64,000 bases of DNA. Origin: Clostridium cylindrosporum DSM 605 (GTDB lineage Bacteria; Bacillota; Clostridia; Clostridiales; Caloramatoraceae). The position numbers were made by a program, and so were the translations under genes. Positions within the stretch are counted from its first letter, which is position 1. Each line of letters begins with the position of its first letter. Below are positions 4,143-38,476 of the stretch, piece by piece. Location of the stretch: positions 1 to 64,000 of the forward strand of contig NZ_LFVU01000028.1 in assembly GCF_001047375.1 (NCBI RefSeq). Reading direction: 5' to 3'. A model generated the notes under the pieces. The model was not told where the DNA came from. It saw only the letters and a list, made by a program, of their open reading frames with translations, and ran no database searches.

Positions 4143-6014
4143 CTAATTATGACACTCGCAATTGTTTTCCTCTTCATCTACTAAATGATAAGGGAAAGTA
4201 GAAACTATTATATTATTGTTTCTAAGTAAAGTTTCTCTAATAAAGAAACTTGTATTATTGTGTAGGACCTCATTCCATTTATCATGCGTAACGAATTGTG
4301 GTACAATTACTGTTATTTTTTCATCTTTATTTATTTTATTCGCAATTAATTCTATAGATTCAAGTAGTGGAGTGACTACAGCTCTATATGGAGAGTACTT
4401 TGTAACAAGTTTTATGTCTGTATTAAGTTCACTCCATCTATATTTTAACTTTTCCATTGCTTCCTTATCCGTTGATATGTTAAGAGCAATAACATTTTTA
4501 CTTATACTTTGAGCATATTGAAGTGCACCTATAGATGCCTTATTCAGTGTAGAAATCGGAACTATTACAATGTGAGAGTACTGTACCCTAAGGTCCACAT
4601 TCTTTAAATTTAGATTACTAATACTTAAACCACAAGCAACTTTATCATAGTGAGCTTTAATTTTTAGCTGAACTAAAATTATAATAGGAATTAAAATTGC
4701 AACTATAAATGCACCTTCACTAAATTTCTCTACTAGAATTATTATTGTTGTTATTAAAGTAACTAAAGCACCGAACCCGTTAATTGCAGCACCTTTCATC
4801 CAACCCTTGTTTCGCTTTTTTCTCCAGTAATTTACCATACCAAATTGTCCTAGGGTAAATGATATAAATACACCTATTGCATATAATGGAATCAACCTAT
4901 GTGTATCTGCTTTAAATATAATAACTAGGACACAGGCTATAAATGATAATGCAATTATCCCAAAGGAAAAACTAAGTCTCTTTCCTCTAGTAGTAAATTG
5001 TCTAGGAACAAAACCATCCTTTCCAACTACGTACATAAGCATTGGGAACCCTGTATATGCTGTATTACATGCCATAAGTAAAATTACAGCTGTACTAAAC
5101 TGAATTACATAGTACATTATTCCATTATTGAAAATACCAAATGCTATTTGCGATACAACTGTAGGTCCATTTACAATTGGAACTGCTGTATAGAATATAG
5201 CGAGTACTGAAGTTCCACCAAATATGAAGAATATTAAACCTGCTAATAATAGCATAACAATTTTAGCATTCTTTTGGCTAGGCTCCTGGAAATTCGGTAC
5301 TGAATTACTAACAGCTTCTACACCTGTTAAGGCAGAACATCCTGATGAGAAAGCCCTTAATATAATAAATATCGATAGACTTTCAGTTGCCTTTGTAGGA
5401 ATAGAATACATCGGTTCTGGATGGATATTAAGTACAAAATACTTAAATAATCCATAAAGAATCATAAAAATCATACTAAAAATAAAAATGTAAGTAGGAA
5501 TAGCAAAAATCTTTGAGGACTCACTTATCCCTCTTAAATTTAAAATAGTCAAAACTATAATTATAACTACAACGAAAATAACCTTATACTCTGCTAATCC
5601 GCTAAATGCAGAAACAATAGCATCCGCACCAGCACTTGCACTAACTGCAACAGTAAGTATGTAACTAATTATTAATCCTGCACCAGCGGATAAACCTGCC
5701 TTAGTACCTAGGTTTTCCTTAGCTACCTTATAAGCTCCTCCTCCTTGAGGATAAGCTTTTATAATTTGAATATAGGAAACTGTTAGTATGAACAATAATC
5801 CAATAATCATAAATGAAGTCCAAGTTAACCATTTATAAGCTGATGCCCCTAAAACTATAAGTACAAAAAGAATTTCCTGAGCTCCGTAAGCCACAGATGA
5901 TATTGCATCGCTGGCCATAATCGCTAGTCCAAAAGGAATATTATACTTTTCGTGACTACCTTGCTCATTTGCCAAGGGTTCTCCTATTAAGACATCCAAA
6001 AACTTTTTAAGCAT
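4143..6014 (-). CDS. kimA: KimA-like high-affinity potassium importer (APC superfamily)
   Basis: 623 aa, close in length and motif order to Bacillus subtilis KimA (YdaO, ~607 aa). N-terminal ASDAISSVAYG, IIKAYPQGGGAYKVAKENLG, TVAVSASAGADAI and AFSSGCSALTGVEAVSN are KimA signatures, followed by hydrophobic segments adding up to about 12 membrane helices. The last ~150 residues form a soluble universal-stress-like domain (HIVIVPISTLNKA, VIALNISTD, FPQFVTHDKW). KimA is a K+/H+ symporter inhibited by c-di-AMP. The usual ydaO c-di-AMP riboswitch is not recognisable upstream. Ribosome binding site GGAGGAATAATT precedes the ATG. A C-terminal tail ends in CECHN, which I cannot assign. A related APC transporter with a different substrate is possible. 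Confidence 0.75.
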   Translation of the reverse strand: MLKKFLDVLIGEPLANEQGSHEKYNIPFGLAIMASDAISSVAYGAQEILFVLIVLGASAYKWLTWTSFMIIGLLFILTVSYIQIIKAYPQGGGAYKVAKENLGTKAGLSAGAGLIISYILTVAVSASAGADAIVSAFSGLAEYKVIFVVVIIIVLTILNLRGISESSKIFAIPTYIFIFSMIFMILYGLFKYFVLNIHPEPMYSIPTKATESLSIFIILRAFSSGCSALTGVEAVSNSVPNFQEPSQKNAKIVMLLLAGLIFFIFGGTSVLAIFYTAVPIVNGPTVVSQIAFGIFNNGIMYYVIQFSTAVILLMACNTAYTGFPMLMYVVGKDGFVPRQFTTRGKRLSFSFGIIALSFIACVLVIIFKADTHRLIPLYAIGVFISFTLGQFGMVNYWRKKRNKGWMKGAAINGFGALVTLITTIIILVEKFSEGAFIVAILIPIIILVQLKIKAHYDKVACGLSISNLNLKNVDLRVQYSHIVIVPISTLNKASIGALQYAQSISKNVIALNISTDKEAMEKLKYRWSELNTDIKLVTKYSPYRAVVTPLLESIELIANKINKDEKITVIVPQFVTHDKWNEVLHNNTSFFIRETLLRNNNIIVSTFPYHLVDEEENNCECHN

Positions 6015-6297
6015 TAATTATTCCTCCGTATTATCTTATGAAAAATATTATAAGCATTATATTCTTTTAAAAACCTTCAACTAGTATAATGAACAGATGT
6101 ATACATTTTATTATAACTCTTAATTTATTATCTATACTTTTATCATTTCTAGCTGTATTTCTGCCTTTTCAATGTGCCAAATTTTACATAAACCACACCT
6201 CGAATTTGCCTCTGAACTTGCGTAATTTAATCAGACATTTTTATTAAACTTTATACATAAAATTACCTTTTTTTATTCCGTAAATTTACACCACTTA
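6015..6297 (-). promoter_or_regulatory. Long untranslated leader of kimA
   Basis: About 275 nt separate the predicted promoter from the kimA start. I see no match to ydaO, K+ or other riboswitch consensus, and no ORF with a ribosome binding site. The middle part (about 6165-6245) is less AT-rich than its flanks and contains short GGCA/TGCC-type complementarities. Confidence 0.35.
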
Positions 6298-6676: not shown

Positions 6677-7663
6677 TCATATTATAATGTTTATCTTTTC
6701 TTTACATTCATTACATCTTCCTTCACTAATATGAACTTTTGTACTATAACCATTTCTATTAATAAGAAGTGCTCCACACTTACTACAGTAGGTATTGTTA
6801 TCAACGCCACCTACATTACCTATATACACATGCTTTAAATACTTTTTAGCTTCATTTTGAGCTTCAGTTATTCTCTCTATCTTTGTTGCCTCATTCTCCA
6901 TTTTGTACCTAGGAAAATACCTACTTAAATGTAGAGGTATATTTTCATTAACGCTTGCTATAAATTGAGCTATTTCCTTAGCTTCCTCTAAGGAATCATT
7001 TTCATCACTTACAAGTAATGTTGTTATCTCAACATGACAATGATCATTACATCTTCTGATAGTTTCAAGTACAGGATTCAAATTCGCACCACATACCTTG
7101 TTATAGTACTTATTAGTATATCCCTTTAAATCAATATTCATAGCATCAACGTAGGGTAAAAGCTTCCTTAGAGGCTCTTCATTTATATAACCATTAGATA
7201 CTACTACTACACTTGTATCCTCATTATCCTCCTTGATTTTCTTAGAGGCATCGCACATATATTCATACCACATCATCGGCTCATTATATGTAAAAGCAAC
7301 CCCAACATTATTTTCTATTGTAGGTATAATTCTTATTAAGTCCTCTGCACTAACAAACTGTGTTGATGGCCTATTTTGAGATATCTCATAGTTTTGACAA
7401 AAACTACAGGTCATATTACAGCCAAAACTTCCAATAGACAATATGTTTTTCGAAGGCTTGTAATGGTATAAAGGTTTCTTTTCTATAGGATCAACTCCAG
7501 AGGATGATACCTCTCCATAGTTTATTGCTATAAGTTCTCCATCCTTAACTGTGCGAACTTTGCATACTCCGAACTTTCCTTCATCTATCAAACAGTTATG
7601 TGGACATACTCCGCATCTATTTCTTTCTTCTTTTTTCTCATAGAATAAAACTTTTGTGTCCAT
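6677..7663 (-). CDS. amrS: AmmeMemoRadiSam system radical SAM enzyme
   Basis: 328 aa, PflA-like radical SAM protein. N-terminal zinc-type cysteines (CGVCPHNC, GVCKVR), a GSFGCNMTCSFCQNYEIS segment with the CxxxCxxC [4Fe-4S]/SAM motif at about residues 81-88, and a C-terminal CSKCG...CNEC pair. It starts 3 nt after the stop of the upstream amrB-amrA fusion, so the two are co-transcribed. This conserved trio (AMMECR1, Memo, radical SAM) is widespread in anaerobes; its substrate is not established, with roles in radical modification proposed. Confidence 0.9.
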   Translation of the reverse strand: MDTKVLFYEKKEERNRCGVCPHNCLIDEGKFGVCKVRTVKDGELIAINYGEVSSSGVDPIEKKPLYHYKPSKNILSIGSFGCNMTCSFCQNYEISQNRPSTQFVSAEDLIRIIPTIENNVGVAFTYNEPMMWYEYMCDASKKIKEDNEDTSVVVVSNGYINEEPLRKLLPYVDAMNIDLKGYTNKYYNKVCGANLNPVLETIRRCNDHCHVEITTLLVSDENDSLEEAKEIAQFIASVNENIPLHLSRYFPRYKMENEATKIERITEAQNEAKKYLKHVYIGNVGGVDNNTYCSKCGALLINRNGYSTKVHISEGRCNECKEKINIII

Positions 7664-7666
7664 CCA

Positions 7667-9076
7667 CTATTCACCTTCTTTATATCTTATAACTTCAAAC
7701 TTTTCTATCTCATAATCTTCATTGTTATTTATCCCAGCCTTACTACAAGCTATACTTAATTGTTCTTCGACACTATCTACACCCTCTAAATCAGGTAATA
7801 GTAGTCCTCTTTTATATCCTCTAGTTACTATAACTCCATACTTTTTCGGATCTAACTCCTCTATACTTGCTGGCACTGCATCCATAAGTACGTCTACAGA
7901 TATATCTATATCATCTAGTTCAAATTCATTTACAGGAGAGAACCTTGGATCTTCTAGGGCAGCTTCTATAGAATTTCTTATTATTTCTTCAGCAACAGAA
8001 TCAGTAACTGGTGAAATTGTCCCTATACATCCTCTTAGAGCTCCAAACTTCTTTAAGGATACAAAAACTCCATGTTTCTGACTTAAAAGTTCACTAGGTA
8101 AGTTTGATGTATCATCCATCCTACTACCATTAGTAAAATAATAATTTAGACTTTCCCTAGCAAGTCTAGTATATGGATTCCCTTCACTTAGCTTCTTTTT
8201 TAATTTCTCTTCCCTAGCTTTTATAAGAAAATCTAAAGCACTACTTTCTTTCTCTTCTCTATTTAACTTCATAACTCCATATCCAACTCCAAAAGGTCCT
8301 TCATAGGATAATAGCTCACCTTTAAAATTATTACCCTCTAATGTACCAAGAAGTATATTTACAGAATTAAGCCCACATTGTGCTGCCTCTTCAATCATAG
8401 TATTATCCATACTAAATAATGAATCTATATTACCTTTTTCAAGGCTATCTAAAAACTCATTATCAAACTTTTCTCCATATGGTGAATATTTATATGCTCC
8501 TTCTTCCTTAAGGGCATGTGAAAGATCTCCACTTGCTATTATTACTATATTTCTACCTAATTCCTTAGCTACATTTTGTATCTCAATTCCAAACTTATAT
8601 AATGACATATTTCCAAGTATTGAGTATGTAATATGAACTAACTTATAGTCTCTGTAATACTTATTTATGAAATATAAGGGAACCATTGTCCCATGGTCTA
8701 ACTTAAATTCGTAATTATAATTACTTAACAAATCTGCATTTACAGTAGCCGCTGGTATTCCCTCTAGATGGCAAGCAAGGTTAAGTCTTTCATTAAACTC
8801 TCTATCTATAGCAATATCCATCTTAATATTACTGCATCCGAATTGACTTAAGTCTCCAGTAATTCTATCTTCATTGGAAATTGCTATTGCATCTGAGAAC
8901 ATAGTTGCATGGGGAGTTATAACTACTATTGTCTCTGGCTTAAGAGCTTTTATCTCTTCTCCTACCTTTTCACAGGCATCTATGGTTTTCTGTATCTTTT
9001 TTTCTTCTCCTTTTCCTATATCAGGAATTATGATTGGTGGATGGGGCATTAGATAATAACCTAAAATATTTTTCAT
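7667..9076 (-). CDS. amrB-amrA: AmmeMemoRadiSam system fusion protein: Memo (AmrB) + AMMECR1 (AmrA)
   Basis: 469 aa. Residues 1-~265 are a Memo-like domain related to extradiol dioxygenases (PHPPIIIPDIGKG near the N-terminus, ITPHATMFSD, LDHGTMVPLYF, ASGDLSHAL). Residues ~285-469 are an AMMECR1 domain (GVFVSLKK, ALRGCIGTI, DPRFSPV). In many bacteria these are separate genes; here they are one polypeptide, directly followed by amrS, supporting physical association of the parts. Function of the system is unresolved. Start ATG preceded by AAGGAGAGTTTAAG. Confidence 0.9.
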   Translation of the reverse strand: MKNILGYYLMPHPPIIIPDIGKGEEKKIQKTIDACEKVGEEIKALKPETIVVITPHATMFSDAIAISNEDRITGDLSQFGCSNIKMDIAIDREFNERLNLACHLEGIPAATVNADLLSNYNYEFKLDHGTMVPLYFINKYYRDYKLVHITYSILGNMSLYKFGIEIQNVAKELGRNIVIIASGDLSHALKEEGAYKYSPYGEKFDNEFLDSLEKGNIDSLFSMDNTMIEEAAQCGLNSVNILLGTLEGNNFKGELLSYEGPFGVGYGVMKLNREEKESSALDFLIKAREEKLKKKLSEGNPYTRLARESLNYYFTNGSRMDDTSNLPSELLSQKHGVFVSLKKFGALRGCIGTISPVTDSVAEEIIRNSIEAALEDPRFSPVNEFELDDIDISVDVLMDAVPASIEELDPKKYGVIVTRGYKRGLLLPDLEGVDSVEEQLSIACSKAGINNNEDYEIEKFEVIRYKEGE

Positions 9077-24725: not shown

Positions 24726-25029
24726 TTATTCTGTAAACAAGTTTTCCATTTGCTTTTTCGATTCCTGAGATAATGCATCGCTAAGATAATTCCGGCTTAC
24801 TCCCTGAATTTTTTCTTGCTCCTCCCTAATCTTCTTATTTGTATTCTCCACCTCGGCCTTCAGTTCTCTGGCGGACATCAACAAACACCCTTCGCCCCTG
24901 ACGATTACTTGCTGCAAGCCGTCTGAGGTTGCAACCACTATATTGTATTTTTTGCTATTGTCATGAGCGAATTTTTCAATATATTGGTCAGCTGTCTGGG
25001 CCGTTGCCAAAAATCTATAAAAATCTATA
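24726..25029 (-). CDS. 3' exon of the Tet(M)-like GTPase: C-terminal part of the NYN (YacP-like) domain
   Basis: In frame this encodes IDFYRFLATAQTADQYIEK then VVATSDGLQQVIVRGEG and LMSARELKAEVE, which is the second half of a YacP/DUF901 NYN domain (AQTADQYIEK and ATSDGLQQ are conserved). The first half lies at the 3' end of the upstream exon (EYLLVDGYNIIFAWPE ... VVFDAYRVEGHREE) on the other side of the IStron. A TTG at 25010 could start a separate polypeptide but has no RBS. I read it as the downstream exon of one gene joined by intron splicing. Confidence 0.8.
25003..25027 (+). repeat. Terminal inverted repeat of a short palindromic element, one arm
   Basis: 25 nt beginning GTTGCC and ending AAAAATCTA, matching the reverse complement of 26895-26919 at 22 of 25 positions. 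It flanks the IStron on the 3' exon side. Confidence 0.6.
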
Positions 25030-25164
25030 AATTCTGTTTAATTCCCTATTCAACCTACCCTATTTCAAATATCCGAAAATATTCTACTTTAGTTTGATGT
25101 AATAGTCCAAGGGCGTAAATTCCGATACAACGAATCGTACATATCAGTAATATCTTTTTTGTGA
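25030..25164 (-). ncRNA. IStron 3' end, putative omega-RNA scaffold
   Basis: Region from the tnpB stop to the right end, with a small hairpin CGAT-tcgttgt-ATCG and GC-richer segments unlike flanking DNA. In tnpB elements this segment is the guide RNA scaffold, with the guide taken from the flanking host sequence (here the 3' exon). Assigned by position, not by a recognised consensus. Confidence 0.45.
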
Positions 25165-26298
25165 TTAACTTACTAATTTATACTTAGATAGATTAATAGC
25201 AGCATTTAAGTCTCTGTCTATATTTAATCCGCAGTCTATGCAGCTATAAGTTCTGTCTGAAAGCTTTAAATCTTTTTTAGTGGCTCCACATGAACTACAT
25301 GTTTTAGATGATGCATACCATTTATCAGCTTGAATAAACTCTATACCGTTAAATTTACACTTATATTTCATTTGACGTATAAATTCATATAGGCATTGAT
25401 TTGCAATAGCTTTTGATAAATGTTTGTTTTTCATCATACCTTTAATATTTAAATCTTCCATAACAACCCTGTAAGGTTTTAACTTAACTATCTTATTCGT
25501 TGTTTGATGAATATGATTGTTTCTAATGTTTGTTAGCCTTCTATATATTAACTTTATTTCTTTTTCAAGTTTAATAATGTTATTAGTCTTAATAAAATTA
25601 GAACCGTTTTTATTCATTTCATACTTTCTCGAAACTTGTCTTTGTAATCTTTTAAGTCTTTTATTCAATCTTCTAACTTCATATGATTTATTAATGTTTT
25701 TAATTGGTTTATCTAAACAGCTAACGAAAGCTAAGTTTTTAATTCCTAAATCTATTCCTATTGATAAATCCTCATTTAACTCGATTTGGTTTTCACCTTG
25801 TTCAAAGCCTAATGTTAGGTACCAGTACTTACCATCAAAATGACACCTAGGGTTATTATATTTAGATAAACTAGGTATCTTATAATTAGTTTTATAATTT
25901 ACCTTACCTATTTTCTCTAAATTCACCTTATTATCTTCAAATTTAATAGCATCATATCTAACATAAAAGCTTTTTCTGGATTTTTTCTTAGATTTAAATT
26001 TAGGATAGTTAGATTCCTTTTTAAAGAATTTCTTAAAAGCATCATCTAAGTCACCAAATGCTTGTGCAGTAACCTGAGCGCTTACTTCATAAAGCCATTT
26101 ATATTCTGGTTGCTTTTTAACTGTATTATTAAATTCTTTCTTAATTGTAGACTTAGATGGTTTTGAACCTTGATTATATAATTCACTCCACTTGTTAAGT
26201 CCCCAGTTATATGCGAATCTAGCTATACCAACAGATTTAAACATTAATTCTTCTTGCTCTTTTGTTGGTAGTAATCTAATTTTTATGGCCTTTATCAT
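25165..26298 (-). CDS. tnpB: TnpB RNA-guided nuclease of the IStron
   Basis: 377 aa from the ATG at 26298, placed after AAGGAGGTGAGATA; an upstream in-frame start at 26316 overlaps the RBS. OrfB_IS605 fold: N-terminal IKIRLLPTKEQEELM, FAYNWGLNKW; RuvC-like catalytic residues all present, D183 (SIGIDLGIKNLAF), E281 (VVMEDLNIKGM), D362 (NIDRDLNAAINL); zinc finger C334-x2-C337...C353-x2-C356 (CSSCGATKKD...CIDCG). Nothing is truncated, so the nuclease should be active. TnpB cuts the donor site after excision and preserves the element. Confidence 0.93.
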   Translation of the reverse strand: MIKAIKIRLLPTKEQEELMFKSVGIARFAYNWGLNKWSELYNQGSKPSKSTIKKEFNNTVKKQPEYKWLYEVSAQVTAQAFGDLDDAFKKFFKKESNYPKFKSKKKSRKSFYVRYDAIKFEDNKVNLEKIGKVNYKTNYKIPSLSKYNNPRCHFDGKYWYLTLGFEQGENQIELNEDLSIGIDLGIKNLAFVSCLDKPIKNINKSYEVRRLNKRLKRLQRQVSRKYEMNKNGSNFIKTNNIIKLEKEIKLIYRRLTNIRNNHIHQTTNKIVKLKPYRVVMEDLNIKGMMKNKHLSKAIANQCLYEFIRQMKYKCKFNGIEFIQADKWYASSKTCSSCGATKKDLKLSDRTYSCIDCGLNIDRDLNAAINLSKYKLVS

Positions 26299-26469
26299 TA
26301 TCTCACCTCCTTGCATACTTATTGTACCAAATAGTTATCACATTATTGACAACCAATTTTTGTAATAAATACTTTGAGGTGATAAAATTATCTCTAATAT
26401 TAGATTACTTATAAAATACAAAGACATTTTTTAAACAAGTTATTTATATATATTTATAGATTTTTGACT

Positions 26470-26869
26470 TTATTCAATAGTATTCGTCATATACTACCAG
26501 TTCTCCTATGAACTTCTTATGCTTTCACATAAGCGTAGACTATATCATTACCTATTTCTAGGTATCCCCCACTTCCACTATCATTATTGACTTATAGTGT
26601 ACTTCCCTTCGGAATAGTCGTTGAAGTTTATTCATATCCATTGGACTTAGAATCTTACCTGCTGATTGCCTATTATTTAAAGCACTTAGGATTTAACCTT
26701 ATGCTATCTTAGTACTTTTTTCTGCTTTCGCAACATTCAAGCTTATCTTTTCAGATTACTTTGTAGTGTACTAAGCTTTAAGGGTTTCCAGCAATTCAAG
26801 GGATTTTGGATGGCCATTGCCACCACTCCATGCTCTTTATGAACATGGGAGGCTGTTGACAATTTTAAT
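26470..26869 (-). ncRNA. Group I intron ribozyme of the IStron
   Basis: Core elements in order on the minus strand: P (AATTGCTGGAAACCC, 26782-26796), Q (AATCAGCAGGTAAG, 26654-26667), R (TTCAACGACTATT, about 26613-26625) and S (AATGATATAGTCTACG, 26534-26549). R and S pair through GACTAT/ATAGTC as P7 does. A P2-type hairpin (CCTCCCATG...CATGGaGTGG) lies near the 5' end and a P9-like hairpin (GTAGTAT...ATACTAT) near the 3' end. Splicing anywhere equivalent to collapsing the 17-nt repeat restores the host reading frame. Confidence 0.88.
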
Positions 26870-29300
26870 ATCTATAAAAATCTATATGTTTTATTAGATT
26901 TTTATAGATATTTTGTAACTGTTCGGTTACCTCTTTAGTAAATACCATATGTATATTGTGATAGTCCACTATTTCCTCACGATGACCCTCAACACGGTAA
27001 GCATCAAAAACAACAACAATTTCTTTATTGTGAAAACCTTTATAATCACTTAGGATATCAAGTAATTTTATTCTGGCACCATCCATATTATCCTCTGCCA
27101 GTTCACTTAACTCTGGCCATGCAAAGATAATATTATAACCATCCACAAGAAGATATTCTTCTTTATTTGTATAATCTCTAGAAACAAAGTTTGATGTAAC
27201 AGGTTTGTAATAAGCTGCCCTAGCTGGCTTATAACTTTTCCATGCAGATTTCCTTCCCTGGTTGGCATAGTAGGTTTGATTGATTATCTTATCAATCTCA
27301 TCAGGGCTAATGAAACTCTCTTCTGTATATGCAGCTTGTTTTTGCATTCCTGAGCAGGATAACTCTTCTTTTTTATCAAAATAACTTTCTAAATGCATGT
27401 AATCCTTCACATTATTCCATTCAACAATAAAACCTGAACCTTGGGCACAGAATACAGAACTAGCCGTATTTCCAATGTCTCTTTCAGGATCATATGCTAT
27501 GCGCTCTATGACATCCTCAGAATTATGACAGGGCTCATATCCTTTTAAACTGCAAAAGAGCCTGCCAGTACCTTTGGTATAAGCAATCACTTCTTTTTGA
27601 TAATTTCTCATACCACTAACTGGGGCACTTCCAACTAAAACTGCGGTTTCACCGTCTGAATGAGCTATTTCGCAGGTACCATGAATTTTGTCAACATCAG
27701 TCATGGCTCTTCCTAACATTTTCTCAGGCAATTCAAGCTGAAAGGAGTAGTAAGGCTCCAACAAAACAGATTTAGCCTCCATTAAGCCCTGACGTACTGC
27801 ACGCCAGGTGGCCTCTCTAAAGTCACCGCCTTCAGTATGCTTATTGTGTGCTCTGCCAGAGACTAAAGTGATTTTCATATCAGTAATCTCCGAACCTGTT
27901 AAAACTCCTTTATGAACTTTTTCTTCAAGATGGTGTATAACTAAGTTCTGCCAACTCTTGCCTAGTATATCTTCACTGCATTTAGTTTCAAACACTAAAC
28001 CGCTTCCTATCTCGCCTGGCTCCAATAAAAGGTGAACCTCAGCATAATGCCTAAGGGGTTCAAAATGCCCTACTCCCTCAACTATATTTGCAATTGTTTC
28101 CTTATATACAATTCCTCCTGCATCAAAGGATACATCAACATCAAAACGGCTTTGTATCATGTTCTGAAGGATTTCGATCTGAACCTCACCCATAATACGA
28201 ACCTGAATCTCCTGCAACTGCTCATCCCACACAATATTAAGTTCTGGGTCCTCCTCTTCAATCTGACGTAGTTTAGGAATCATTGCTCTTGGGTCGCATC
28301 CCTCGGGCAGTATCATCTGATAGGACAATACAGGTTCAAGCACCGGAGCATTTGAAGCTTCCTCTACCCCTAGGCCTTCTCCTGGTCTGGCCTGACTTAG
28401 CCCTGTAACTGCACATATAGAGCCCGCTTCTATCTCACTTATTGCTTCAAATTTATTTCCAGAATATATGCGTATCTGATTTATTTTCTCTTCCCAGCCA
28501 TGATTGGATAGAACATCCTTTACCTTTAGCTTTCCACCGGTAACCTTCAAGTGAGTAAGGCGATTTCCCTGGTCATCCCTGGTTACTTTGAATATCTTAG
28601 CCCCAAATTCATCTGGATAAGAAGGTATTATAGTATAATCAACAATAACTTGTATCAATTGCTCAATGCCTTCCAATCTTAAAGCTGACCCGAAAATACA
28701 TGGAAATACCTTTCTACCCTTAATAGCTTCCCTAATCTGAACAGTTTCAATATGTTCTGTTTCCAGAAAGGTTTCCATCATGCTTTCATCACACATGGCC
28801 AGCTGATCGTAAAAGCCTTCTGTCTTTACCTGTTCAAATTCAACACATCCGTCATTTAGTTTCTTTTTCAATTCTTCTATTAACCTATCCTTATCCGTGC
28901 CACTTTGATCCATCTTGTTCACAAAAATAAAAGTAGGAATCTCATACAGTTCCAGAAGCCTCCAGAGAGTCCTTGTGTGTCCCTGAACACCATCTGCACC
29001 ATTTATAACTAGTATGGCATAATCTAATACCTGCAGTGTCCTCTCCATTTCAGCGGAAAAATCCACATGTCCTGGAGTATCCAGCAAGGTTATCTGATAC
29101 CCATTGGTTTCAAATATTGCCTGCTTGGAAAAAATAGTGATACCCCTTGCCCGCTCCAGCTCATAGGTATCCAAATATGCATCTTTATTATCTACTCTTC
29201 CTAATTTTCTAATCTTACCACTCATATAGAGCATACCCTCTGACAAGGTTGTCTTGCCCGAATCAACATGAGCTAATATTCCAATGACTATTTTTTTCAT
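26870..29300 (-). CDS. 5' exon of a Tet(M)-like ribosomal-protection GTPase fused to a NYN domain
   Basis: EF-G-like translational GTPase of the TetM/TetO family: AHVDSGKTT (G1, residues 10-18), RGITI (G2), DTPGHVDF (G3), NKMD (G4), followed by domains II-V. Compared with Tet(M) (~640 aa) it has a C-terminal extension of which VDGYNIIFAWPE and EIVVVFDAYRVEG are the start of a YacP-like NYN endonuclease domain. The rest of that domain is at 24726-25029. Without splicing the ORF reads through the palindromic element and stops inside the IStron at 26865, giving 811 aa. Such fusions are annotated in clostridia as tetracycline-resistance-like translation factors; whether it protects from tetracycline is not known. 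Confidence 0.85.
26895..26919 (-). repeat. Terminal inverted repeat of a short palindromic element, other arm
   Basis: Minus strand begins GTTACA and ends AAAAATCTA; partner of 25003-25027. Without the IStron the two arms make a palindrome of about 60 bp that is translated in frame inside the NYN domain. Confidence 0.6.
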
Positions 29301-29685: not shown

Positions 29686-32619
29686 CTAAGATTTATTTTT
29701 TCTAGCATCAATAATTAAAGTGTCTCCTATGTTGTAGGTTATCAAATTTATATCTTTCAAGACTTGACTCATTCGCTTTCTATCTAGCCTACTCACAACT
29801 TCACCAGTATAGTTACTATATTCCGTGGTAAAATTGTAATATTCATTTTCCACAAACATTTTCAACTCTATATGTTCATTATCTAATTCTAGACTTTCAT
29901 GGAATGCTTTACCTAAGTATTCCATTGCTTTAATAATATTACCGTTATCCCCCAATGTTTTGTAGATTAAAAACAAATTCTCAGTAATTATTGCATTATT
30001 CCTTCCTTTATTGCTCTTATTAATTGTATGAGCTTTGTTTAACTTATCAAGCGCCTTGTTATAATTAGAACTTTTATAATATATGTATCCCATTTTCATG
30101 TAGCACCATGATACCTCGATACTCTTTTCTCCAAAAGTACTTGAACTAGAAGACAATAGCTCCTTGCAAAAGTTAATAGCATCACTATATTCTTCAAGAT
30201 CAATTAGTGCGTCAATTACAATTCTAGTCTTTTCTATAGTAAGTTTAGAATTATTCCCATATATATCTTTATATTTCTTAATAGCTTCTTTATAATTCTG
30301 TATTGCATCACCTTTATTACCAACCTTTTCATGCGCAATTGCAAGATTGAACTCACTATCAATGATGATAGGATGCATTGGTTCATATAGCTTTTTTCTT
30401 AAATGATAGGCTTCGTTAATATTTATTATATACTTATCTTCTCTCTTTCTCTTAAGTGCAATATATGCTTTTAATTCTAATGTATCTGCATATAGCTTAT
30501 TTTCTGTCCCATAATGCTTAATTACTAAAGGTTCTATCTTATCTATCAAATTTTCCAGTTGATCTATCTCGTTAAGATTAAGTAGACATATCCCTAGATT
30601 AATCTTTTTTACTAGTAATTCTTTGTGTGATTTAGGATAAAATGATTCATCAATACTTATTGCTTCCATATATAAATTATATTCTTCATTATGTTCTCCC
30701 AATGAACTTAAAAGAACAGCCTTATTGTTTATAGCTTTTGAATAATGTAGACTTTTCTTAGTATAGATCTTTTCTGCTAAACTAATAGCCTCATCAATAT
30801 GAGATCGTGCTTCTTCATATTGCCCACTTTTAGTTTCTAAATCACAAATATTACATAAAATTGTTATTTTGGATTTTTCCATATCATCGAACTTTTCTAA
30901 TTCTTTAAGACTTTTCTTTAGATATATAATAGCCTGAAAGTAATCTCCTCTTTTTTTGAATAAGTTCGCAATATTATTTAATATTATAGAAACATTTCTT
31001 TCATCGTTATCCGCTCTTAATCTATCCAATGTTCCTAGATAAATATCTTGAGCCTTATCATCTTCTCCTAATTCTATCATAATACCTGCAAGAAGTACTG
31101 AAGCCATATTTAAATGATTATTTTCACTATCACCATAGTGATTAAATATGTCATATGCTTTTTGAGCATATGACATGGCTTTTTCTGTTTGCAAAAGTAA
31201 TTTAAAAGCAATTGCTCCTTTATATAAAAGCTCTGCAATAAGTCTTTTTTCTTGCAGGCAATCTCCATATATTGTTATATTATCCACTAAAGCTTCAAAA
31301 TGAGAAATTAGACTAAAACTATCTATAATTTTTACTTCATCTAAAAAATTATTTGGGAAGATGTTACAAAAAAGCTTTAAGGCTAGTAACATAGTCTCAT
31401 TATTTTCATTAGTATCTCTTAAAATAGCTTTTATTGATTCTATTATTAAACAATGTATAGATATATTGGACTTAGATAATTCTATTAATGAATACTTATT
31501 CAAGTTAGCAAGTGCATTATTTAAATTTAAAATATCTACATTTGTATCTAACACTTCTTCTAAGATAGTAATCTTGTTTTCAACGATTCTTCTTGGGAGA
31601 CTGTCTGGAGATAAAAAAGCAAATATATACATCAAATTCTTGCTAAGATTATTCTCTTTTGATATAGCATCTAGTCCAATTTGTCCTACAGATTTTATTG
31701 TATATTCATAATCTTTACTTGGTTCTCCACTTTCTAATACATCCATCTTATACTTATTATATAGTTCTACATAGTCCCTAAAGCCTATTTTGTTATATTC
31801 AATATATGATGCAGCTTGTACTAGTGCTATTGGCAAATTTCCTAGTAAATTCCCGACAATCTTAGCCCATTCTCTATCTTCTAATTGAGTTCTTTCTAAT
31901 AAAAAATCTATCGCTGTTTCTTCGTCAAACGGATTAATTTTCATAGGAGGTGTAAGTTCATTCCAATTAGAATTTTTTGATGTAATAATTATACTTAGCA
32001 TATTATCATACTCGATAGGCAAGTAATCATATATCATTTTATAATCAATTGCATCATCAAATATAAGCAATACTCGTTCTGTATCTAATACTTTGAAAAT
32101 AACCTCTTGTATAATAGTATCCACAGTTTTATTTTCATAGCCTAGCTTTAGATATTTAGCTAACTCCAAGAAGCTTTTAAGAATTTCCTCTTTTGAGCTA
32201 CACTTTATCCATGCAACTAACTTATAATGTTGCTTATTATCAATAGCATACTTTAATGCAAGTCTCGACTTTCCTACCCCGGGTAGTCCAGTTATTACTT
32301 GAATTTTATTCTTCAATAACCTATCTTTCAAGTCCCATAGTTCATTATCTCTTCCACAGCATTTCATATTTCTTATCTGCGGTACAAAAAAGATTTGTTC
32401 ATCATTTGAAGTATCTTGGTTGATAGAACTTCCATATATATATTTTTCTATATATATTCCATTGTTTATATTTATTTGCCTGTGATTTTCTTGTGTTCCA
32501 AAATTACAATTTTCAACAGTGTTAAAATTACTATCCTCAAAGTTTATAACTTTTTTATTATTAATTCTCCCAAATAAGTTTCCAATAATATGTCTAAATA
32601 AATATTTATTTTCTCTCAT
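29686..32619 (-). CDS. NB-ARC/TPR STAND ATPase (NLR-like), probable immune sensor
   Basis: 977 aa from the ATG at 32619 (the in-frame TTG at 32631 is an alternative). Residues 18-45: an Asn/Gln-rich motif, RINNKKVINFEDSNFNTVEN then NFGTQ. Residues ~88-400: NB-ARC with GLPGVGKS (Walker A, 111-118), VLLIFDDA (Walker B), IIITSKN and GNLPIALVQAA (GxP motif). Residues ~450-930: many TPR units (e.g. ALKLFCNIF, AQKAYDIFNHYGD, IYLKKSLKELEKFDD, ALDKLNKAHTIN). Bacterial NB-ARC-TPR proteins oligomerise on sensing phage and activate an effector. No enzymatic effector domain is fused; the small membrane protein encoded just upstream (14-nt overlap) shares the N-terminal motif and is the likely effector. 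Confidence 0.85.
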   Translation of the reverse strand: MRENKYLFRHIIGNLFGRINNKKVINFEDSNFNTVENCNFGTQENHRQININNGIYIEKYIYGSSINQDTSNDEQIFFVPQIRNMKCCGRDNELWDLKDRLLKNKIQVITGLPGVGKSRLALKYAIDNKQHYKLVAWIKCSSKEEILKSFLELAKYLKLGYENKTVDTIIQEVIFKVLDTERVLLIFDDAIDYKMIYDYLPIEYDNMLSIIITSKNSNWNELTPPMKINPFDEETAIDFLLERTQLEDREWAKIVGNLLGNLPIALVQAASYIEYNKIGFRDYVELYNKYKMDVLESGEPSKDYEYTIKSVGQIGLDAISKENNLSKNLMYIFAFLSPDSLPRRIVENKITILEEVLDTNVDILNLNNALANLNKYSLIELSKSNISIHCLIIESIKAILRDTNENNETMLLALKLFCNIFPNNFLDEVKIIDSFSLISHFEALVDNITIYGDCLQEKRLIAELLYKGAIAFKLLLQTEKAMSYAQKAYDIFNHYGDSENNHLNMASVLLAGIMIELGEDDKAQDIYLGTLDRLRADNDERNVSIILNNIANLFKKRGDYFQAIIYLKKSLKELEKFDDMEKSKITILCNICDLETKSGQYEEARSHIDEAISLAEKIYTKKSLHYSKAINNKAVLLSSLGEHNEEYNLYMEAISIDESFYPKSHKELLVKKINLGICLLNLNEIDQLENLIDKIEPLVIKHYGTENKLYADTLELKAYIALKRKREDKYIININEAYHLRKKLYEPMHPIIIDSEFNLAIAHEKVGNKGDAIQNYKEAIKKYKDIYGNNSKLTIEKTRIVIDALIDLEEYSDAINFCKELLSSSSSTFGEKSIEVSWCYMKMGYIYYKSSNYNKALDKLNKAHTINKSNKGRNNAIITENLFLIYKTLGDNGNIIKAMEYLGKAFHESLELDNEHIELKMFVENEYYNFTTEYSNYTGEVVSRLDRKRMSQVLKDINLITYNIGDTLIIDARKNKS

Positions 32620-32773
32620 TCTGATCACCAAAATTATTATCTTTGATAATATTAAAGTTACTCTTATTTAAATTAATTACTTTTTTATTATTAAATCGCT
32701 TTGCAGAATAAATAATAGTAATTAATATCCCAGCTACTCCTAGTATTACCCCTATTAACAAGCTTGTATCCAC
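32606..32773 (-). CDS. Small single-pass membrane protein paired with the NB-ARC gene
   Basis: 55 aa from the GTG at 32773, which is 7 nt after GGAGG; the ATG at 32779 is too close to the RBS. MDTSLLIGVILGVAGILITIIYS is almost all one membrane helix, followed by a basic boundary (AKR) and a tail FNNKKVINLNKSNFNIIKDN then NFGDQNERK. The tail aligns without gaps with residues 18-45 of the NB-ARC protein (16 of 28 identical: NNKKVIN, SNFN, NFG, Q). Stop TAA at 32606 lies inside the NB-ARC gene start, so translation is coupled. Proposed role: membrane-disrupting effector recruited through the shared motif. Unannotated size class; function is inference. Confidence 0.75.
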   Translation of the reverse strand: MDTSLLIGVILGVAGILITIIYSAKRFNNKKVINLNKSNFNIIKDNNFGDQNERK

Positions 32774-32779
32774 AGTCAT

Positions 32780-33205
32780 CCCTCCATTTGTTTTTGTTGC
32801 ATTTCAAATCTTTTTCTAAGCTATATATTACCATAACTTGTTTGGGCTTTAATACTACTTGATTTATATAGTCAGATAAGTATGTAATATCGTCCTTAGG
32901 TAAATTCAACATCGTGACAAGAGGACTAATCATGATATCTAACGTTTTCAAAACTAGCATTTTTGCAAATTAAATTATGTATATTGGTTTGATAATTATA
33001 TTTATCTTAAAATCCCTTATATTTCACTGGAGAAGCAGGCAAATTAAATCTTACTAACCTTTTTTAAATTTCTTCCATTCTCTTTATCTTTTGTTTCATT
33101 TTTCTTCTTTTTTACCTCTCCCCATATATGCCTTCAAAACAAAAATACACTATAACTCAATATGGTAATTATACCACATTTATACATAATATTATATTTT
33201 TCATA
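32780..33205. other. Upstream region of the NLR pair
   Basis: Contains a TATAAT at about 33165 on the minus strand that could serve as -10 for the pair. An open frame from 32960 lacks an RBS and overlaps the small membrane gene in another frame; its first ~55 codons could be a gene relic, but I do not recognise it. Confidence 0.3.
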
Positions 33206-33237
33206 TAAAAAACCCACGACATTTTTGTCGTGGGTTT
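33206..33237 (-). terminator. Terminator at the island's far end
   Basis: AACCCACGAC-aaaaat-GTCGTGGGTT with T6 on the minus strand. It sits directly after an ssrA-like 3' end, as the terminator at 37318-37355 does after ssrA itself, and is probably the displaced original ssrA terminator. Confidence 0.8.
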
Positions 33238-33252
33238 CAATGGTGGAGGCGA
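33232..33252 (+). repeat. Attachment-site copy (ssrA 3' end duplicate)
   Basis: GGGTTTCAATGGTGGAGGCGA: on the minus strand this ends in TCGCCTCCACCA, the 3' terminus of tmRNA, followed by the start of a terminator. It matches 37350-37369 with one extra A. Confidence 0.75.
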
Positions 33253-33322
33253 AGCGCGACCTTTAAAACCCACCAAAATTAAATTTATAGATAACTATAA
33301 ACAAAATTACATATATAAATTC

Positions 33323-33664
33323 CTACTTATAGCTTGAAGTTTCTATTTTAATAATTCGATTAAGTTTTTCATAAGTATCCATATGAATCCCCCAACTAGA
33401 TTTTTCATTAATTTGGTGTACCTTACAGCTATCAACAAAATCTCTAGTTAGCTGTACAAACAAATTGTATATTTCCTCTTCCTTTTTACAACTCTTTTTA
33501 CATGCAATATAAAACAACTCTTGGAAAAGATTCAAGCTTTCGTATCTTTTATATAAAGTAACCTTCTCCTCTATTCTTTTATAATCCATATTTAAAATTT
33601 TATCTATTATTTCTTTTTTACTCAGATTAATTTTTGTACTAACATTTTTCTTTATATCATCCAT
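33323..33664 (-). CDS. Hypothetical protein downstream of trlF-like gene
   Basis: 113 aa, strong RBS GGAGGATATTTTAT before ATG. Lysine-rich and helical, with a CKKSCKKEEE segment and no membrane helix. It starts 77 nt after the stop of the PHP-ATPase gene in the same direction and is probably co-transcribed. I do not recognise the family; by position it could be a partner or regulator of the ATPase. Confidence 0.65.
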   Translation of the reverse strand: MDDIKKNVSTKINLSKKEIIDKILNMDYKRIEEKVTLYKRYESLNLFQELFYIACKKSCKKEEEIYNLFVQLTRDFVDSCKVHQINEKSSWGIHMDTYEKLNRIIKIETSSYK

Positions 33665-33741
33665 ATAAAATATCCTCCAATTTTGTCTTTATATATTATA
33701 TGGATGATAAAATATATTTATTATTAAAGTTTTTCTCCTAC

Positions 33742-36522
33742 TTATTCCGTATACTTCTTACTCCTCTTTTCAAATGCAGGCATAGTACCCTCTAGAACGT
33801 CTACAATATACTTTCTCATTTCTGAAGCTTCCATACTATTATAAGTATATTTAAGATGTAATTCTTCTTTATTCATACTACTATAAATAATTTGTTCTGA
33901 ATCACATGCCACTGCTATATTAGGGTTATGGGTAACTATAATAATCTGCCTCTGAGCTTTTGCTCTAATTATATATTTCACTAATCTATCAAAAATAGAT
34001 TGGTTATCTAAATTATCTTCTGGCTGATCTATTATTAAAGGGCAATTTTCCTTATCCAATAATAAATAGAATATTAATAATAATAATCCTCTTTCACCTG
34101 GAGATAATTTACTTAATAATTTATCCCCTAATTTTAGTTGATAATTTGTTTTTATATAATCTAATCCATAAAGATTGTTAAAAAATTCTGCCTTATCTAA
34201 AAACACTTTATCGTAATCTGATGATGAATTTTTTAATTCATCTTCTATTTTTTTTAAAGAATCAAATACGCTATCAAATTCATCTATTTTTATTGTTTCT
34301 ACTAATAAAGATAAATTTTCCTTAGCCTGTTCTTTTCCTCTAAATATACTTTTTACATTTTGATTAATATGATTAAACAACTTTCTTTCCATATTATTAC
34401 TATCTAAATAAAAATTAATCTCTATTTTAGGCTTTTCTGATTCTTTTATATCAAGTTCACTTATTGCGCTATTTATATATGAATACTTTTGTGCATATTT
34501 TTCTACAATACTCTTTTTTAACAAATAAACTTCTTTGCATATCAACTTCCTTGATTCATATAGCTCATTTAGTTTTATAGGAATATCTTCTTCTAATACT
34601 CTAAGTTCTTCCCTTATTTTAGTAATATTCTCAGAGACTTTAGCAACTTTTTCTCTCCATTTTATTAAATCCTGTAAATAATTTTGATAATTCACCTCTG
34701 CTAATGATAATTTACTTGTTATTTGGGTAATTCTTTGCTGTGTCTCTTTTAACTTGAGCACTAATGTACCATCTTTCTTATCATTTTCAATAGTACTTAT
34801 TTCTAACTTTATACTATTTATCCCACTTTCAACTTGTTTCTTTAAAGATAGTAAATCTTCACAATTTACGTCTACCTTGCATGCAACTATTTCTTTTACT
34901 CCATTACTTAGCAAATTATTATTTAATTTATCGAACCATTCTTCTACACTATTCTTTGCTTTTTCAATTTGTTCTAAAGTACTTTCTATCAAATGTTGTT
35001 TTTTACTCAAATTGTCTAAATCTTGCTTTTTAATTTCAAATTGCTTTTTTAAATCCTCCATTTGAACATTAAGCATATTTAATGTTTCTTCTACTTGAGT
35101 GTCTATATTAGGCTTTACAACATCTATAGGTTTATTATTTGCTTCCTGTTCCAGTTGCTTTTGATAATCATTTAACTTTTCATTCAAAATTCGCTTTTCA
35201 CCAAGTGAACTCTTATTTTCCTTCTCTATAATTTGAGCATTTATTTCCTTTAACTTTACTTGCTTGGAATCAATATCTTTAACTACATTACTTGTTAAGT
35301 ATTCCATTAAGTGAAATAAAGAATCCATACCTAGTTTTTCCTCTTGTGGTAAATAGTCAAAAATAAGTCTTTCTATCTCATCATTAAAACCATCCTTTAA
35401 ATCATTACATACGTATTCAATATATTGTTGAGGTAAATATTTGACTTTCTCTACTAATAATGTATTATCAGTAGGAAATAATAACTTCTCCTCTTCAATT
35501 CCATTCTTCCATTTGAGTACTACACCATAATTTTTACCTAAATAATCTGGTTTTTGATTAAACTTTTCAGTACTTAAAAAAGAAAATTTATTATTATGAG
35601 TATTTCCTGCATGTCCAATTATATCTGCTAATGCACTTTTACCATTACCTTTGTTACCGATAATTGTAACTAAGTCATAATTTAGTGGTATTTCATCATC
35701 AAACCACTTATCTGAAGGTGTTATTCCTTTAATTTTAATGCTATCTATAAATTTATGACTATTATCATTAACAATTTTCTTCTTAGGAGGAATGTCTCCT
35801 ACAAAAAATCGTAACTCTGGTTCTTTAATTGCTTGCAGCAATCCCTCAAATGACGCATCTGCCTTTATCCATAAGTTCTCTTTCAATTGATAATTCCTAG
35901 GATCATGGTTATCGGAACAAATTATCATTGGCTTTCTTCTAACAGTTTTAAAAACGAATTTATTATAGTTATCTATATCATTTATCTTTCCCATTTCAAA
36001 AACATCTGCATATTCTGCAATTTCAGCTTTAATAGCCATATTAACTTCTAGAGAATTTGTTATACCATCATCAATTCCTTTATCTTTTTTACCAGCATGA
36101 ACACTAACAATGCCATTATTAGTCCTAGCAAATTCAACAATATCTTTGTAGTCCCAGTAAATGCTATCATGGTTATCCTTATTTCTTGCTTTATCATCTT
36201 TCATGATTACACTAAATCTGGTTGAAAGCTTATCCAAATCCTGATTAGAAAAAATTAAAATTACATGTAAATTTGAAGTTCCTTTATCACACCTTAGTTC
36301 TACTCCCGGTAAAATAGTAATTTCTGGTGCTAACAATTGTAGTTTTTTTATTCTTTCAGCATCAATTAAAAAATGATCTGTAATAGCAACAACCGCTAAT
36401 TCCTTTTCTCTCCAAGACTTTACTAATAATTCATCACAATCATCTGTTTTATATTTATAATCATATGATGATGCTGTATGAACATGCAAATCCCATTTTC
36501 TCCATTCTGACCCTCTACTCAT
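33742..36522 (-). CDS. TrlF-type PHP domain + SMC-like AAA ATPase, probable defence protein
   Basis: 926 aa. Residues 5-~235: PHP phosphoesterase domain with DLHVHT (11-16), ITDH (47-50), VHAG (141-144) and CSDNHD (202-207), the metal-binding His/Asp set. Residues ~275-926: an ABC/SMC-like ATPase with Walker A GNKGNGKS (289-296), a long coiled coil (~400-700), the signature LSPGERGLLLL and Walker B CPLIIDQPEDNLD, then IIVTHNPN. Matches the TrlF architecture. Related PHP or TOPRIM nuclease-SMC ATPase proteins (RloC, OLD, Lamassu) sense or cut nucleic acid during phage infection. Lies on a mobile island in ssrA, which supports a defence role; substrate is unknown. Confidence 0.85.
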   Translation of the reverse strand: MSRGSEWRKWDLHVHTASSYDYKYKTDDCDELLVKSWREKELAVVAITDHFLIDAERIKKLQLLAPEITILPGVELRCDKGTSNLHVILIFSNQDLDKLSTRFSVIMKDDKARNKDNHDSIYWDYKDIVEFARTNNGIVSVHAGKKDKGIDDGITNSLEVNMAIKAEIAEYADVFEMGKINDIDNYNKFVFKTVRRKPMIICSDNHDPRNYQLKENLWIKADASFEGLLQAIKEPELRFFVGDIPPKKKIVNDNSHKFIDSIKIKGITPSDKWFDDEIPLNYDLVTIIGNKGNGKSALADIIGHAGNTHNNKFSFLSTEKFNQKPDYLGKNYGVVLKWKNGIEEEKLLFPTDNTLLVEKVKYLPQQYIEYVCNDLKDGFNDEIERLIFDYLPQEEKLGMDSLFHLMEYLTSNVVKDIDSKQVKLKEINAQIIEKENKSSLGEKRILNEKLNDYQKQLEQEANNKPIDVVKPNIDTQVEETLNMLNVQMEDLKKQFEIKKQDLDNLSKKQHLIESTLEQIEKAKNSVEEWFDKLNNNLLSNGVKEIVACKVDVNCEDLLSLKKQVESGINSIKLEISTIENDKKDGTLVLKLKETQQRITQITSKLSLAEVNYQNYLQDLIKWREKVAKVSENITKIREELRVLEEDIPIKLNELYESRKLICKEVYLLKKSIVEKYAQKYSYINSAISELDIKESEKPKIEINFYLDSNNMERKLFNHINQNVKSIFRGKEQAKENLSLLVETIKIDEFDSVFDSLKKIEDELKNSSSDYDKVFLDKAEFFNNLYGLDYIKTNYQLKLGDKLLSKLSPGERGLLLLIFYLLLDKENCPLIIDQPEDNLDNQSIFDRLVKYIIRAKAQRQIIIVTHNPNIAVACDSEQIIYSSMNKEELHLKYTYNSMEASEMRKYIVDVLEGTMPAFEKRSKKYTE

Positions 36523-36744: not shown

Positions 36745-37092
36745 TTAATAAACCTTAATATAGAAGCTATTACTATATCTTTCAAATAAACCATGCCTAT
36801 CAATTTTACTTAAAATCTCTACACCTTGACAATTTTTCAGCATATTAAAAGACACATTGAAGATTACTTCAATGTGTTCTTTATGCACTACTACTTCTTT
36901 TACGAAGTCCTGTATAAACTTTTTACATTCTAGTATGTTTCTACTTATTACATAACCCTTGAAGTTATTTAATAACATTCTTACATCTGCTCCGGTTACC
37001 ATTTGAGCTATATCATCTGATTTTAGTTTGGATTGCTTAAACTCTAACTCAGACTTTTGCATTTGTGCATATTTATCAAAAAATATTTATTT
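36745..37092 (-). pseudogene. C-terminal remnant of a large serine recombinase
   Basis: Open frame from about 37092 without a start; first ATG at 37062. FDKYAQMQKSELEFKQSKLK, then CKKFIQDFVKEVVVHKEHIEVIFNV is the end of a resolvase-type integrase (coiled coil plus final beta region). The catalytic N-terminal domain and zinc ribbon are missing. It lies about 300 nt from the ssrA 3' end and is the likely former integrase of the island. Confidence 0.75.
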
Positions 37093-37355: not shown

Positions 37356-37369
37356 CATGGTGGAGGCGA
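37350..37369 (+). repeat. Attachment-site copy at the ssrA 3' end
   Basis: GGGTTTCATGGTGGAGGCGA, matching 33232-33252. Together they bound a 4.1-kb island. Confidence 0.75.
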
Positions 37370-37984
37370 GGGGACATGTTCTTCCACTATCTCTAATGGC
37401 ACTGACTATATCTTTAGCTCCAAAATATTTACTTGTAGCTACTTGGCGTATTATAGAAGTATAATATAGTTTTTACCTTCTATCCTAGTATCTCATATCA
37501 TAAGATTTAGAGACCTATAAGTCGATAAGGAGCTGTTAGGTTTCCCTACATACCCCTCGGTATTGCCGGTAGCATTACCTACTACGGTTTCACCGATAAA
37601 GCCAAGTTTTCACTTATGAATTACTTCATAAGGCGACTCTTTTCAAATCGAACCCCTGTCCGAAAGCATAAAAACTTAAGCATCTCCGAGTGCAGTTCTT
37701 GTTTTGAGATTCCCCCTATCTATCGCCCAAGAACAGGCTATAGATTTCGGTAGCTTCATAAATTCCGTTCCTATCTCAAAGCTTTGACAGGCGCGTTTCC
37801 CCACTTATTTGACACCCTGGTCCTAAGCTGTGGGAAGCCTAGGCAGGATGAGCTGCAACTAGGCAGCTAATGCGTAATTTTCGTTTTTTGCGTTTATATT
37901 TAAGTTCCCAGTTTTTAACGAGGTACAGGTCCTCGACTCGCTTCCTAAGCTCCTACTACCCCCGTCGAATGCCTTGACGCCCCC
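37358..37984 (-). ncRNA. ssrA: tmRNA gene, interrupted by an intron in the T-loop
   Basis: 5' GGGGGCG (37978-37984) pairs with 3' CGCCTCC before CCA (37358-37360). The tag reading frame GCAAAAAACGAAAATTACGC... encodes AKNENYALAA and then TAG, ending in the LAA degron expected for ClpXP. Pseudoknots surround it. The tRNA-like T-arm (AGGGG TTCGAT) is cut after TTCGAT at 37647 and resumes with TCCCCTCGCC at 37374. Without the 272-nt insert the mature RNA is about 355 nt, a normal tmRNA length. smpB is the next gene upstream, as usual. Confidence 0.95.
37375..37646 (-). ncRNA. Group I intron in the tmRNA T-loop
   Basis: The 272-nt insert begins after a U (exon 1 ends CGAU) and ends in G, as group I introns do. 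P1: exon CGAU pairs with internal GUCG (about 11 nt into the intron), with U-G at the splice site. P2: CTTATGAA-gtaa-TTCATAAG. A GTAGGGAAACCTAACAGC segment and an S element (AAAGATATAGTCAG, about 37414-37427) are present, with GACTTATA upstream able to pair with TATAGTC as P7. No ORF inside. Removal restores a perfect 5-bp T-stem with TTCGATT loop. Confidence 0.9.
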
Positions 37985-38017: not shown

Positions 38018-38476
38018 CTAAAACTTTTCTCTAAGAGATCTTTCGATATCTCTCTTGGCGTCTTTCTTAGCTAAATCCTGACGTTTGTCGTAAAGCTTCT
38101 TACCCTTAGCTACTGCTATCTTAACCTTTACTAGTCCACGCACTTCATATAGTGCTAGTGGTACAAGTGTTAGGCCTTCTTGGGTTAAATTCTGTTCAAG
38201 CTTTCTTATTTCACTTTTATGAAGAAGAAGCTTTCTAGTTCTTAATGGGTCTTTATTAAATATATTACCCTTTTCATATGGACTTATGTGTAGGTTATTA
38301 AGAAAAACCTCTCCATTCTTCACTGTAGCATAGCTGTCCTTAAGATTGGCTTTGCCAAGTTTCACAGACTTAACTTCAGTTCCAAATAGTTCTATGCCTG
38401 CTTCATATGTTTCCTCTATGAAGTATTCATGTCTTGCTTTTCTATTTTCAGCAAGTGTATTACTCTTACCTTTCAT
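38018..38476 (-). CDS. smpB: SsrA-binding protein
   Basis: 152 aa, usual length. [20 protein letters not shown] near the N-terminus, [19 protein letters not shown], and the basic tail [20 protein letters not shown] that inserts into the mRNA channel. Binds the tRNA-like domain of tmRNA during ribosome rescue. Lies between rnr and ssrA, same strand, RBS TAGGTGATGTA. Confidence 0.97.

What the first reader, a model, noticed from the sequence alone, without database searches (positions are those of the whole stretch)
37358..37984. Group I intron inside the T-loop of tmRNA
The ssrA gene is split after TTCGAT by a 272-nt ORF-less insert with group I features: U before the 5' splice site, terminal G, U-G P1 pair (CGAU/GUCG), a P7-compatible pair and an AAAGATATAGTC S element. 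Joining the exons restores a perfect T-arm and a 355-nt tmRNA. Group I introns in tmRNA are, as far as I recall, reported in only a few bacteria. Ribosome rescue would depend on self-splicing.
Basis: partly seen in the sequence, partly recalled or inferred. Interest (0 to 1): 0.82.

Follow-up and report, generated by a model that had tools for sequence, protein, structure and literature searches.

The report
Self-splicing intron in tmRNA gene
The gene for tmRNA, the RNA that rescues stalled ribosomes, is split here by a ribozyme-type (group I) intron; this is real but belongs to a well-catalogued class seen in hundreds of bacteria, so it is a good example rather than a discovery.

Summary
On the minus strand ssrA has exon 1 (37984-37647, 338 nt), a 272-nt insert (37646-37375) and exon 2 (37374-37358, 17 nt). 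The joined exons are a 355-nt tmRNA (tag AKNENYALAA) that ARAGORN finds; the unjoined gene is not found. The insert is a group I intron. Rfam Intron_gpI covers it end to end (41.4 bits, E 4e-9, below the curated cut-off of 50). A 64-pair group I structure (P1-P9, P7.1/P7.2, P9.0) is kept in 98.3% of cells over 35 relatives, and 37 pairs show changes on both sides. Near relatives carry the exact empty site. The kind is known: a 2025 survey lists 883 intron-bearing tmRNA genes in 21 phyla, mostly at this same T-loop position, and the Clostridium botulinum homologue self-splices. "Only a few bacteria" is out of date. Modestly new: this intron groups with introns of another family while its tmRNA and SmpB stay with their own, which suggests that the intron moved sideways although it has no endonuclease gene. 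Seen in passing and probably more unusual: the same genome's dnaE is cut by three group I introns at conserved motifs, and the window holds an IStron.

The parts
37647..37984 (-). ssrA exon 1 (338 nt): 5' acceptor strand, tag reading frame AKNENYALAA, pseudoknots, T-arm 5' strand up to TTCGAT
   Evidence: Rfam tmRNA 145.5 bits at 37644-37975; ARAGORN on joined exons
37375..37646 (-). group I intron, 272 nt, without ORF
   Evidence: Intron_gpI E 4.2e-9; covariation; empty sites in relatives
37358..37374 (-). ssrA exon 2 (17 nt): T60, T-stem 3' strand, acceptor 3' strand, ACCA
   Evidence: sequence; ARAGORN on joined exons
37634..37650 (-). P1: exon CGAU plus intron U1 (37650-37646) with AGUCG (37638-37634); [quoted passage not shown]
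   Evidence: all 35 sequences paired, the pair at intron base 1 covaries UA/CG
37613..37632 (-). P2 hairpin, 8 pairs, GUAA loop
   Evidence: 7 of 8 pairs change on both sides
37442..37606 (-). P3 (37606-37601 with 37447-37442), 6 pairs
   Evidence: 3 of 6 pairs change on both sides, none broken
37528..37596 (-). P4, P5, P6, P6a
37404..37523 (-). P7 (37523-37520 GACU with 37407-37404 AGUC), guanosine-binding helix
   Evidence: invariant in 35 of 35, so no covariation; place fixed by the core
37453..37513 (-). P7.1 and P7.2, the extension between P7 and P3 that Rfam's model treats as an insert
   Evidence: 8 of 11 pairs change on both sides; insert in the alignment
37415..37441 (-). P8
   Evidence: 4 of 5 pairs change on both sides
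37377..37401 (-). P9 (GAGA loop, 37399-37384) and the P9.0 pair 37401/37377
   Evidence: P9.0: UA in 20, CG in 15 of 35
38018..38476 (-). smpB, tmRNA's protein partner, directly upstream of ssrA
   Evidence: Pfam SmpB 1.6e-62

Best explanation
A 272-nt group I intron without a gene of its own sits in the T-loop of the tmRNA gene, after the sixth loop base (TTCGAT|T, 'position 7' of the tmRNA survey). In the precursor, CGAU at the end of exon 1 pairs with the intron's guide (A)GUCG. A guanosine bound in P7 attacks at U-1, then the freed exon 1 attacks after the terminal G, and joining makes the T-arm and acceptor stem whole so that tmRNA can be charged with alanine and used. Shown: exon and intron limits, the joined tmRNA, covarying group I core, empty sites in relatives. 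Inferred: that it splices, and does so by itself. Also inferred, from discordant trees: this copy came sideways from a Clostridium-like donor rather than down the host's own lineage.
For: ARAGORN finds tmRNA only in the joined sequence. Intron_gpI covers the insert end to end at E 4.2e-9, and the same-site intron of G003 passes the cut-off at 52.3 bits. 64 pairs are 98.3% paired over 35 sequences, 37 with changes on both sides, 0 of 500 shuffles as high. Relatives G004 and G001 have GGGGTTCGATTCCCCTCGCCTCCACCA without insert, identical to the joined site. The C. botulinum tmRNA intron (287 nt; exons 338 and 24 nt in the construct) is listed as self-splicing (PMC2729099). Intron tree: an intron clade of G000 and G003 is rejected, AU p 0.0006; exon and SmpB trees keep G000 in its own family, 100/99 and 95/88.
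Against: The Rfam score is under the curated cut-off (41.4 against 50). No RNA data. P10 with exon 2 is only about 2 pairs by eye. Losses plus old divergence could partly imitate the transfer signal; intron and exons are short (272 and 338 nt) and some branches are weak.
Confidence: 0.96

Rival explanations
1. A degenerate group I intron that no longer splices, leaving the cell without working tmRNA.
For: Rfam score below cut-off; no expression data.
Against: All paired core helices are intact, P1 and P7 invariant, 98.3% of cells paired. Only one tmRNA over the cut-off is found in the genome, so an inactive copy would remove trans-translation while smpB is kept.
Confidence: 0.03
2. A two-piece (permuted-type) tmRNA or an intervening sequence cut out by protein enzymes.
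For: RF04321 tmRNA_permuted gives a weak partial match at 36.9 bits, under its cut-off of 47.
Against: Gene order is the standard 5'-to-3' one and the joined RNA is a standard one-piece tmRNA; the permuted match lies in shared exon 1, and the insert has the full group I core.
Confidence: 0.01
3. On the history only: the intron is inherited vertically from the ancestor of the order and was lost many times; the odd tree is noise from short sequences.
For: Intron and exon distances correlate overall, r = 0.83 over 115 loci; only 5 state changes needed on the exon tree.
Against: AU test p 0.0006 against a G000+G003 intron clade; grouping G000 with the f2 intron group is rejected by exon data (p 1.8e-6) and SmpB (p 8e-7).
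Confidence: 0.25

Closest known systems
Group I introns at T-loop position 7 of bacterial tmRNA (Williams 2002; survey PMC11915505, 2025)
   Same: Same host gene, same insertion point TTCGAT|T, U-1 and terminal G, similar length (founding set averages 293 nt), no homing endonuclease gene (only 36 of 883 have one), Bacillota host
   Different: Nothing structural; the intron differs from its nearest same-site introns at 19-25% of bases. Whether this very sequence is in the database was not checkable.
Clostridium botulinum tmRNA group I intron (PMC2729099)
   Same: 287-nt intron, 338-nt 5' exon, self-splicing shown
   Different: Different species; not compared base by base here
Phage T4 td and related group IA introns
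   Same: P7.1/P7.2 extension and an AAGAUAUAGUC-type S element (subgroup from general knowledge)
   Different: Host gene; td carries an endonuclease gene
IStrons (CdISt1 type; PMC4227781)
   Same: Also a group I intron, present in the same window (26516-26852)
   Different: Fused to a TnpB insertion sequence; 84 bits to Intron_gpI; no useful sequence match to the tmRNA intron

Membership tests
Group I intron | U at -1 paired with G in P1; G as last intron base | tested here: met
   U-G at the splice site in 35 of 35 aligned sequences; terminal G in all
Group I intron | Core helices P3-P4-P6-P7-P8 in order, with P3/P7 crossing | tested here: met
   100% of cells paired in P3, P4, P7; double changes in P3, P4, P6, P8
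Group I intron | Covariance-model match | tested here: inconclusive
   41.4 bits, under the cut-off of 50, E 4.2e-9, full length; same-site intron of G003 52.3 bits, over it
Group I intron | P10 pairing of the guide with the 3' exon | tested here: inconclusive
   By eye only GA with UC, 2 pairs
Group I intron | Guanosine-dependent self-splicing | not testable with these tools
   Needs RNA work; shown for the C. botulinum homologue (PMC2729099)
tmRNA, intron form | Joined exons form a complete standard tmRNA | tested here: met
   ARAGORN, 355 nt, tag AKNENYALAA
tmRNA, intron form | Intron in the T-loop at one of four known subsites | tested here: met
   TTCGAT|T is position 7 as counted in PMC11915505; position read from the text and sequence
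tmRNA, intron form | Related genes lack the insert at the same point | tested here: met
   L011, L016 and others are uninterrupted
tmRNA_permuted | Permuted gene order | tested here: not met
   Standard order; RF04321 only 36.9 bits, under its cut-off of 47

The most novel reading that the evidence does not exclude
tmRNA introns without endonuclease genes move between bacterial families on their own, separately from the tmRNA gene and its neighbour smpB; this genome, which also carries three dnaE introns and IStron copies, is a recipient and could show by what route (reverse splicing, lost endonuclease, or exchange of short DNA around the T-loop).
Probability: 0.5. Interest if true: 0.45.

Novelty: new member of a known kind. 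Interest (0 to 1): 0.27.

Why it matters
It is a clean case in which a housekeeping RNA depends on a ribozyme for its maturation. It also explains why standard tools miss this ssrA: ARAGORN finds nothing and the Rfam tmRNA match misaligns the 3' end. The discordant intron history makes it a usable case for asking how endonuclease-free group I introns spread.

Tried and rejected
Permuted tmRNA (RF04321, 36.9 bits, below cut-off) rejected on gene order. A second or intact ssrA elsewhere in the genome: none over the cut-off. A duplicate exon 2 or attachment site in the window: the only other hit has 3 mismatches (33241-33257), and no second copy of the intron end turned up in the genome. Origin from the genome's other group I introns: the only notable sequence match is a 37-nt P1-P2 stretch of the third dnaE intron, 89%. 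Pfam on ORF 36745-37062: no family. Literature on group I introns in chromosomal dnaE: none found in the library searched. A first placement of P6 pairs was one base off and was corrected before counting.

Full report
What is there. ssrA lies on the minus strand just downstream of smpB (38018-38476). Rfam tmRNA matches 37975-37644 at 145.5 bits but the alignment breaks off inside the T-loop, and ARAGORN finds no tmRNA in the window. Removing 37646-37375 and joining 37647 to 37374 gives a 355-nt RNA that ARAGORN reports as tmRNA with tag AKNENYALAA; the unjoined sequence gives nothing. The joined T-arm is AGGGG-TTCGATT-CCCCT, and the acceptor stem GGGGGCG/CGCCTCC has the G3-U70 pair known (general knowledge) to mark alanine acceptance. 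A terminator-like hairpin follows the ACCA.

The insert is a group I intron. Searched on a short stretch, Intron_gpI (RF00028) covers 37656-37383 over its whole length at 41.4 bits, E 4.2e-9, under the curated cut-off of 50; the low score goes with a 68-nt insert that the family model does not hold. The homologous intron of a family-mate, G003, passes the cut-off at 52.3 bits. I aligned 35 same-site introns, wrote down a group I structure from the window's own sequence and counted pairs: 98.3% of 2220 cells pair, 37 of 64 pairs change on both sides, 365 double-change cells against 103.7 expected from shuffles, and slid controls pair at 32-41%. P2, P3, P6, P6a, P7.1, P7.2, P8, P9 and the single P9.0 pair all covary; P7 and four of the five P1 pairs are invariant and so say nothing by covariation. 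The caveat that the structure was derived from one of these sequences applies to percentage paired more than to double changes. There is no ORF beyond 39 stop-free codons.

Empty sites and spread. Of 60 relatives, 57 match the query and about a dozen match over all or nearly all of its length. Uninterrupted sites with the identical joined sequence occur in G004 and G001 of the same family.

What is known. A 2025 survey lists 883 unique intron-form tmRNA genes in 21 phyla, nearly all without endonuclease genes and mostly at T-loop position 7, with a U at -1 and a terminal G (PMC11915505). TTCGAT|T is that position. The C. botulinum tmRNA intron is described as previously shown to self-splice (PMC2729099).

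History of this copy. Intron and exon distances over 115 loci correlate well (r 0.83, 0 of 500 permutations), so introns mostly follow their hosts. This one does not. Its closest introns are those of G048 and G041 in family f2 (19-20% differences), while its closest exon 1 is that of G004, which has no intron. A tree of introns places it among f2 introns, and a clade with the intron of G003, the other intron-bearing member of its family, is rejected (AU p 0.0006). Exon 1 and SmpB both keep G000 in its family (100/99 and 95/88), and both reject grouping it with the f2 intron set (p 1.8e-6 and 8e-7). Sideways acquisition is therefore the better reading, at perhaps 0.6-0.7; short sequences and unequal sampling keep it from being settled. 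How an intron without endonuclease moved is unknown.

Mechanism, step by step. Shown by sequence: boundaries, P1, P7, P9.0 and joined product. Inferred from the family: guanosine attack at U-1, exon joining after the terminal G, and catalysis by the RNA alone. Inferred from tmRNA biology: without splicing neither the T-arm nor the acceptor stem is whole, so alanine charging and ribosome rescue need it.

Beyond the finding. The same genome has five more group I introns over the Rfam cut-off. One, in this window at 26516-26852, is the intron of an IStron with TnpB (25165-26316) and a RAGATH-18 RNA (25042-25113); a second copy, 90% identical, is on contig C4. Three lie in dnaE (contig C28, 318861-323522). 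For each of the three there is exactly one U-1/terminal-G junction, within the ranges tried, that restores the conserved protein: LIFER|FLNPERISMPDID, TYGATVYQEQVMQ and YAFNKSHAAAY, with introns of 284, 509 and 353 nt. Relatives have the gene unbroken at these points, except that G005 seems to share the first. The middle one is 73% identical to the IStron ribozyme over 311 nt. A 2014 review names recA, nrdE and flagellin as bacterial protein genes with group I introns (PMC3984707), and dsrA has been added since (PMC4853749), so dnaE deserves a second look of its own.

Noticed in passing
L168 2862-7523 (-) = genome contig C28:318861-323522, outside the window: dnaE (DNA polymerase III alpha) is interrupted by three group I introns (284, 509, 353 nt) at highly conserved motifs; each has exactly one U-1/terminal-G junction that restores the protein. 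The middle one resembles the IStron ribozyme (73% over 311 nt). Likely more unusual than the tmRNA intron.
   Followed up: partly
window 24998-26860 (approximate), with 25165-26316 TnpB, 26516-26852 group I intron, 25042-25113 RAGATH-18: An IStron interrupts a tetracycline-protection/EF-G-like gene (26865-29300) whose end seems to continue at 24726-25010. RAGATH-18 sits at the far end of the element, beside tnpB, and might be the TnpB guide RNA or part of the element's 3' end; a second copy is on contig C4.
   Followed up: partly
window 26516-26852: The whole-window Rfam scan at gathering threshold missed this 84-bit group I intron, which the genome search found: fast filters can hide group I introns.
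   Followed up: no
L138 (reverse strand 4511-4571 and 6232-6292), L125 (reverse strand 4934-5232 and 7553-7904): Second copies of the intron's 3' end plus tmRNA exon 2 lie 1.7-2.7 kb downstream of intron-bearing tmRNA genes, 61 nt identical in L138: possible attachment sites of islands that use the intron-exon 2 boundary.
   Followed up: partly
L083 6060-6760 (Paucisalibacillus globulus): An intron-free tmRNA is followed about 250 nt later by the last part of the intron plus a second exon 2, as if the intron had been displaced by integration of an intron-free 3' end.
   Followed up: partly
G005:C54:918-4446: The dnaE of a family-mate seems to share the first dnaE intron and to hold another group I intron about 32 nt into the following exon, within a 1.2-kb insert.
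   Followed up: no
window 29686-36522: Two large ORFs beside ssrA: a TPR/NB-ARC-like protein (29686-32631, FxSxx_TPR below cut-off) and a PHP-domain ATPase-like protein (33742-36522, PHP below cut-off), possibly a defence or island gene set.
   Followed up: no
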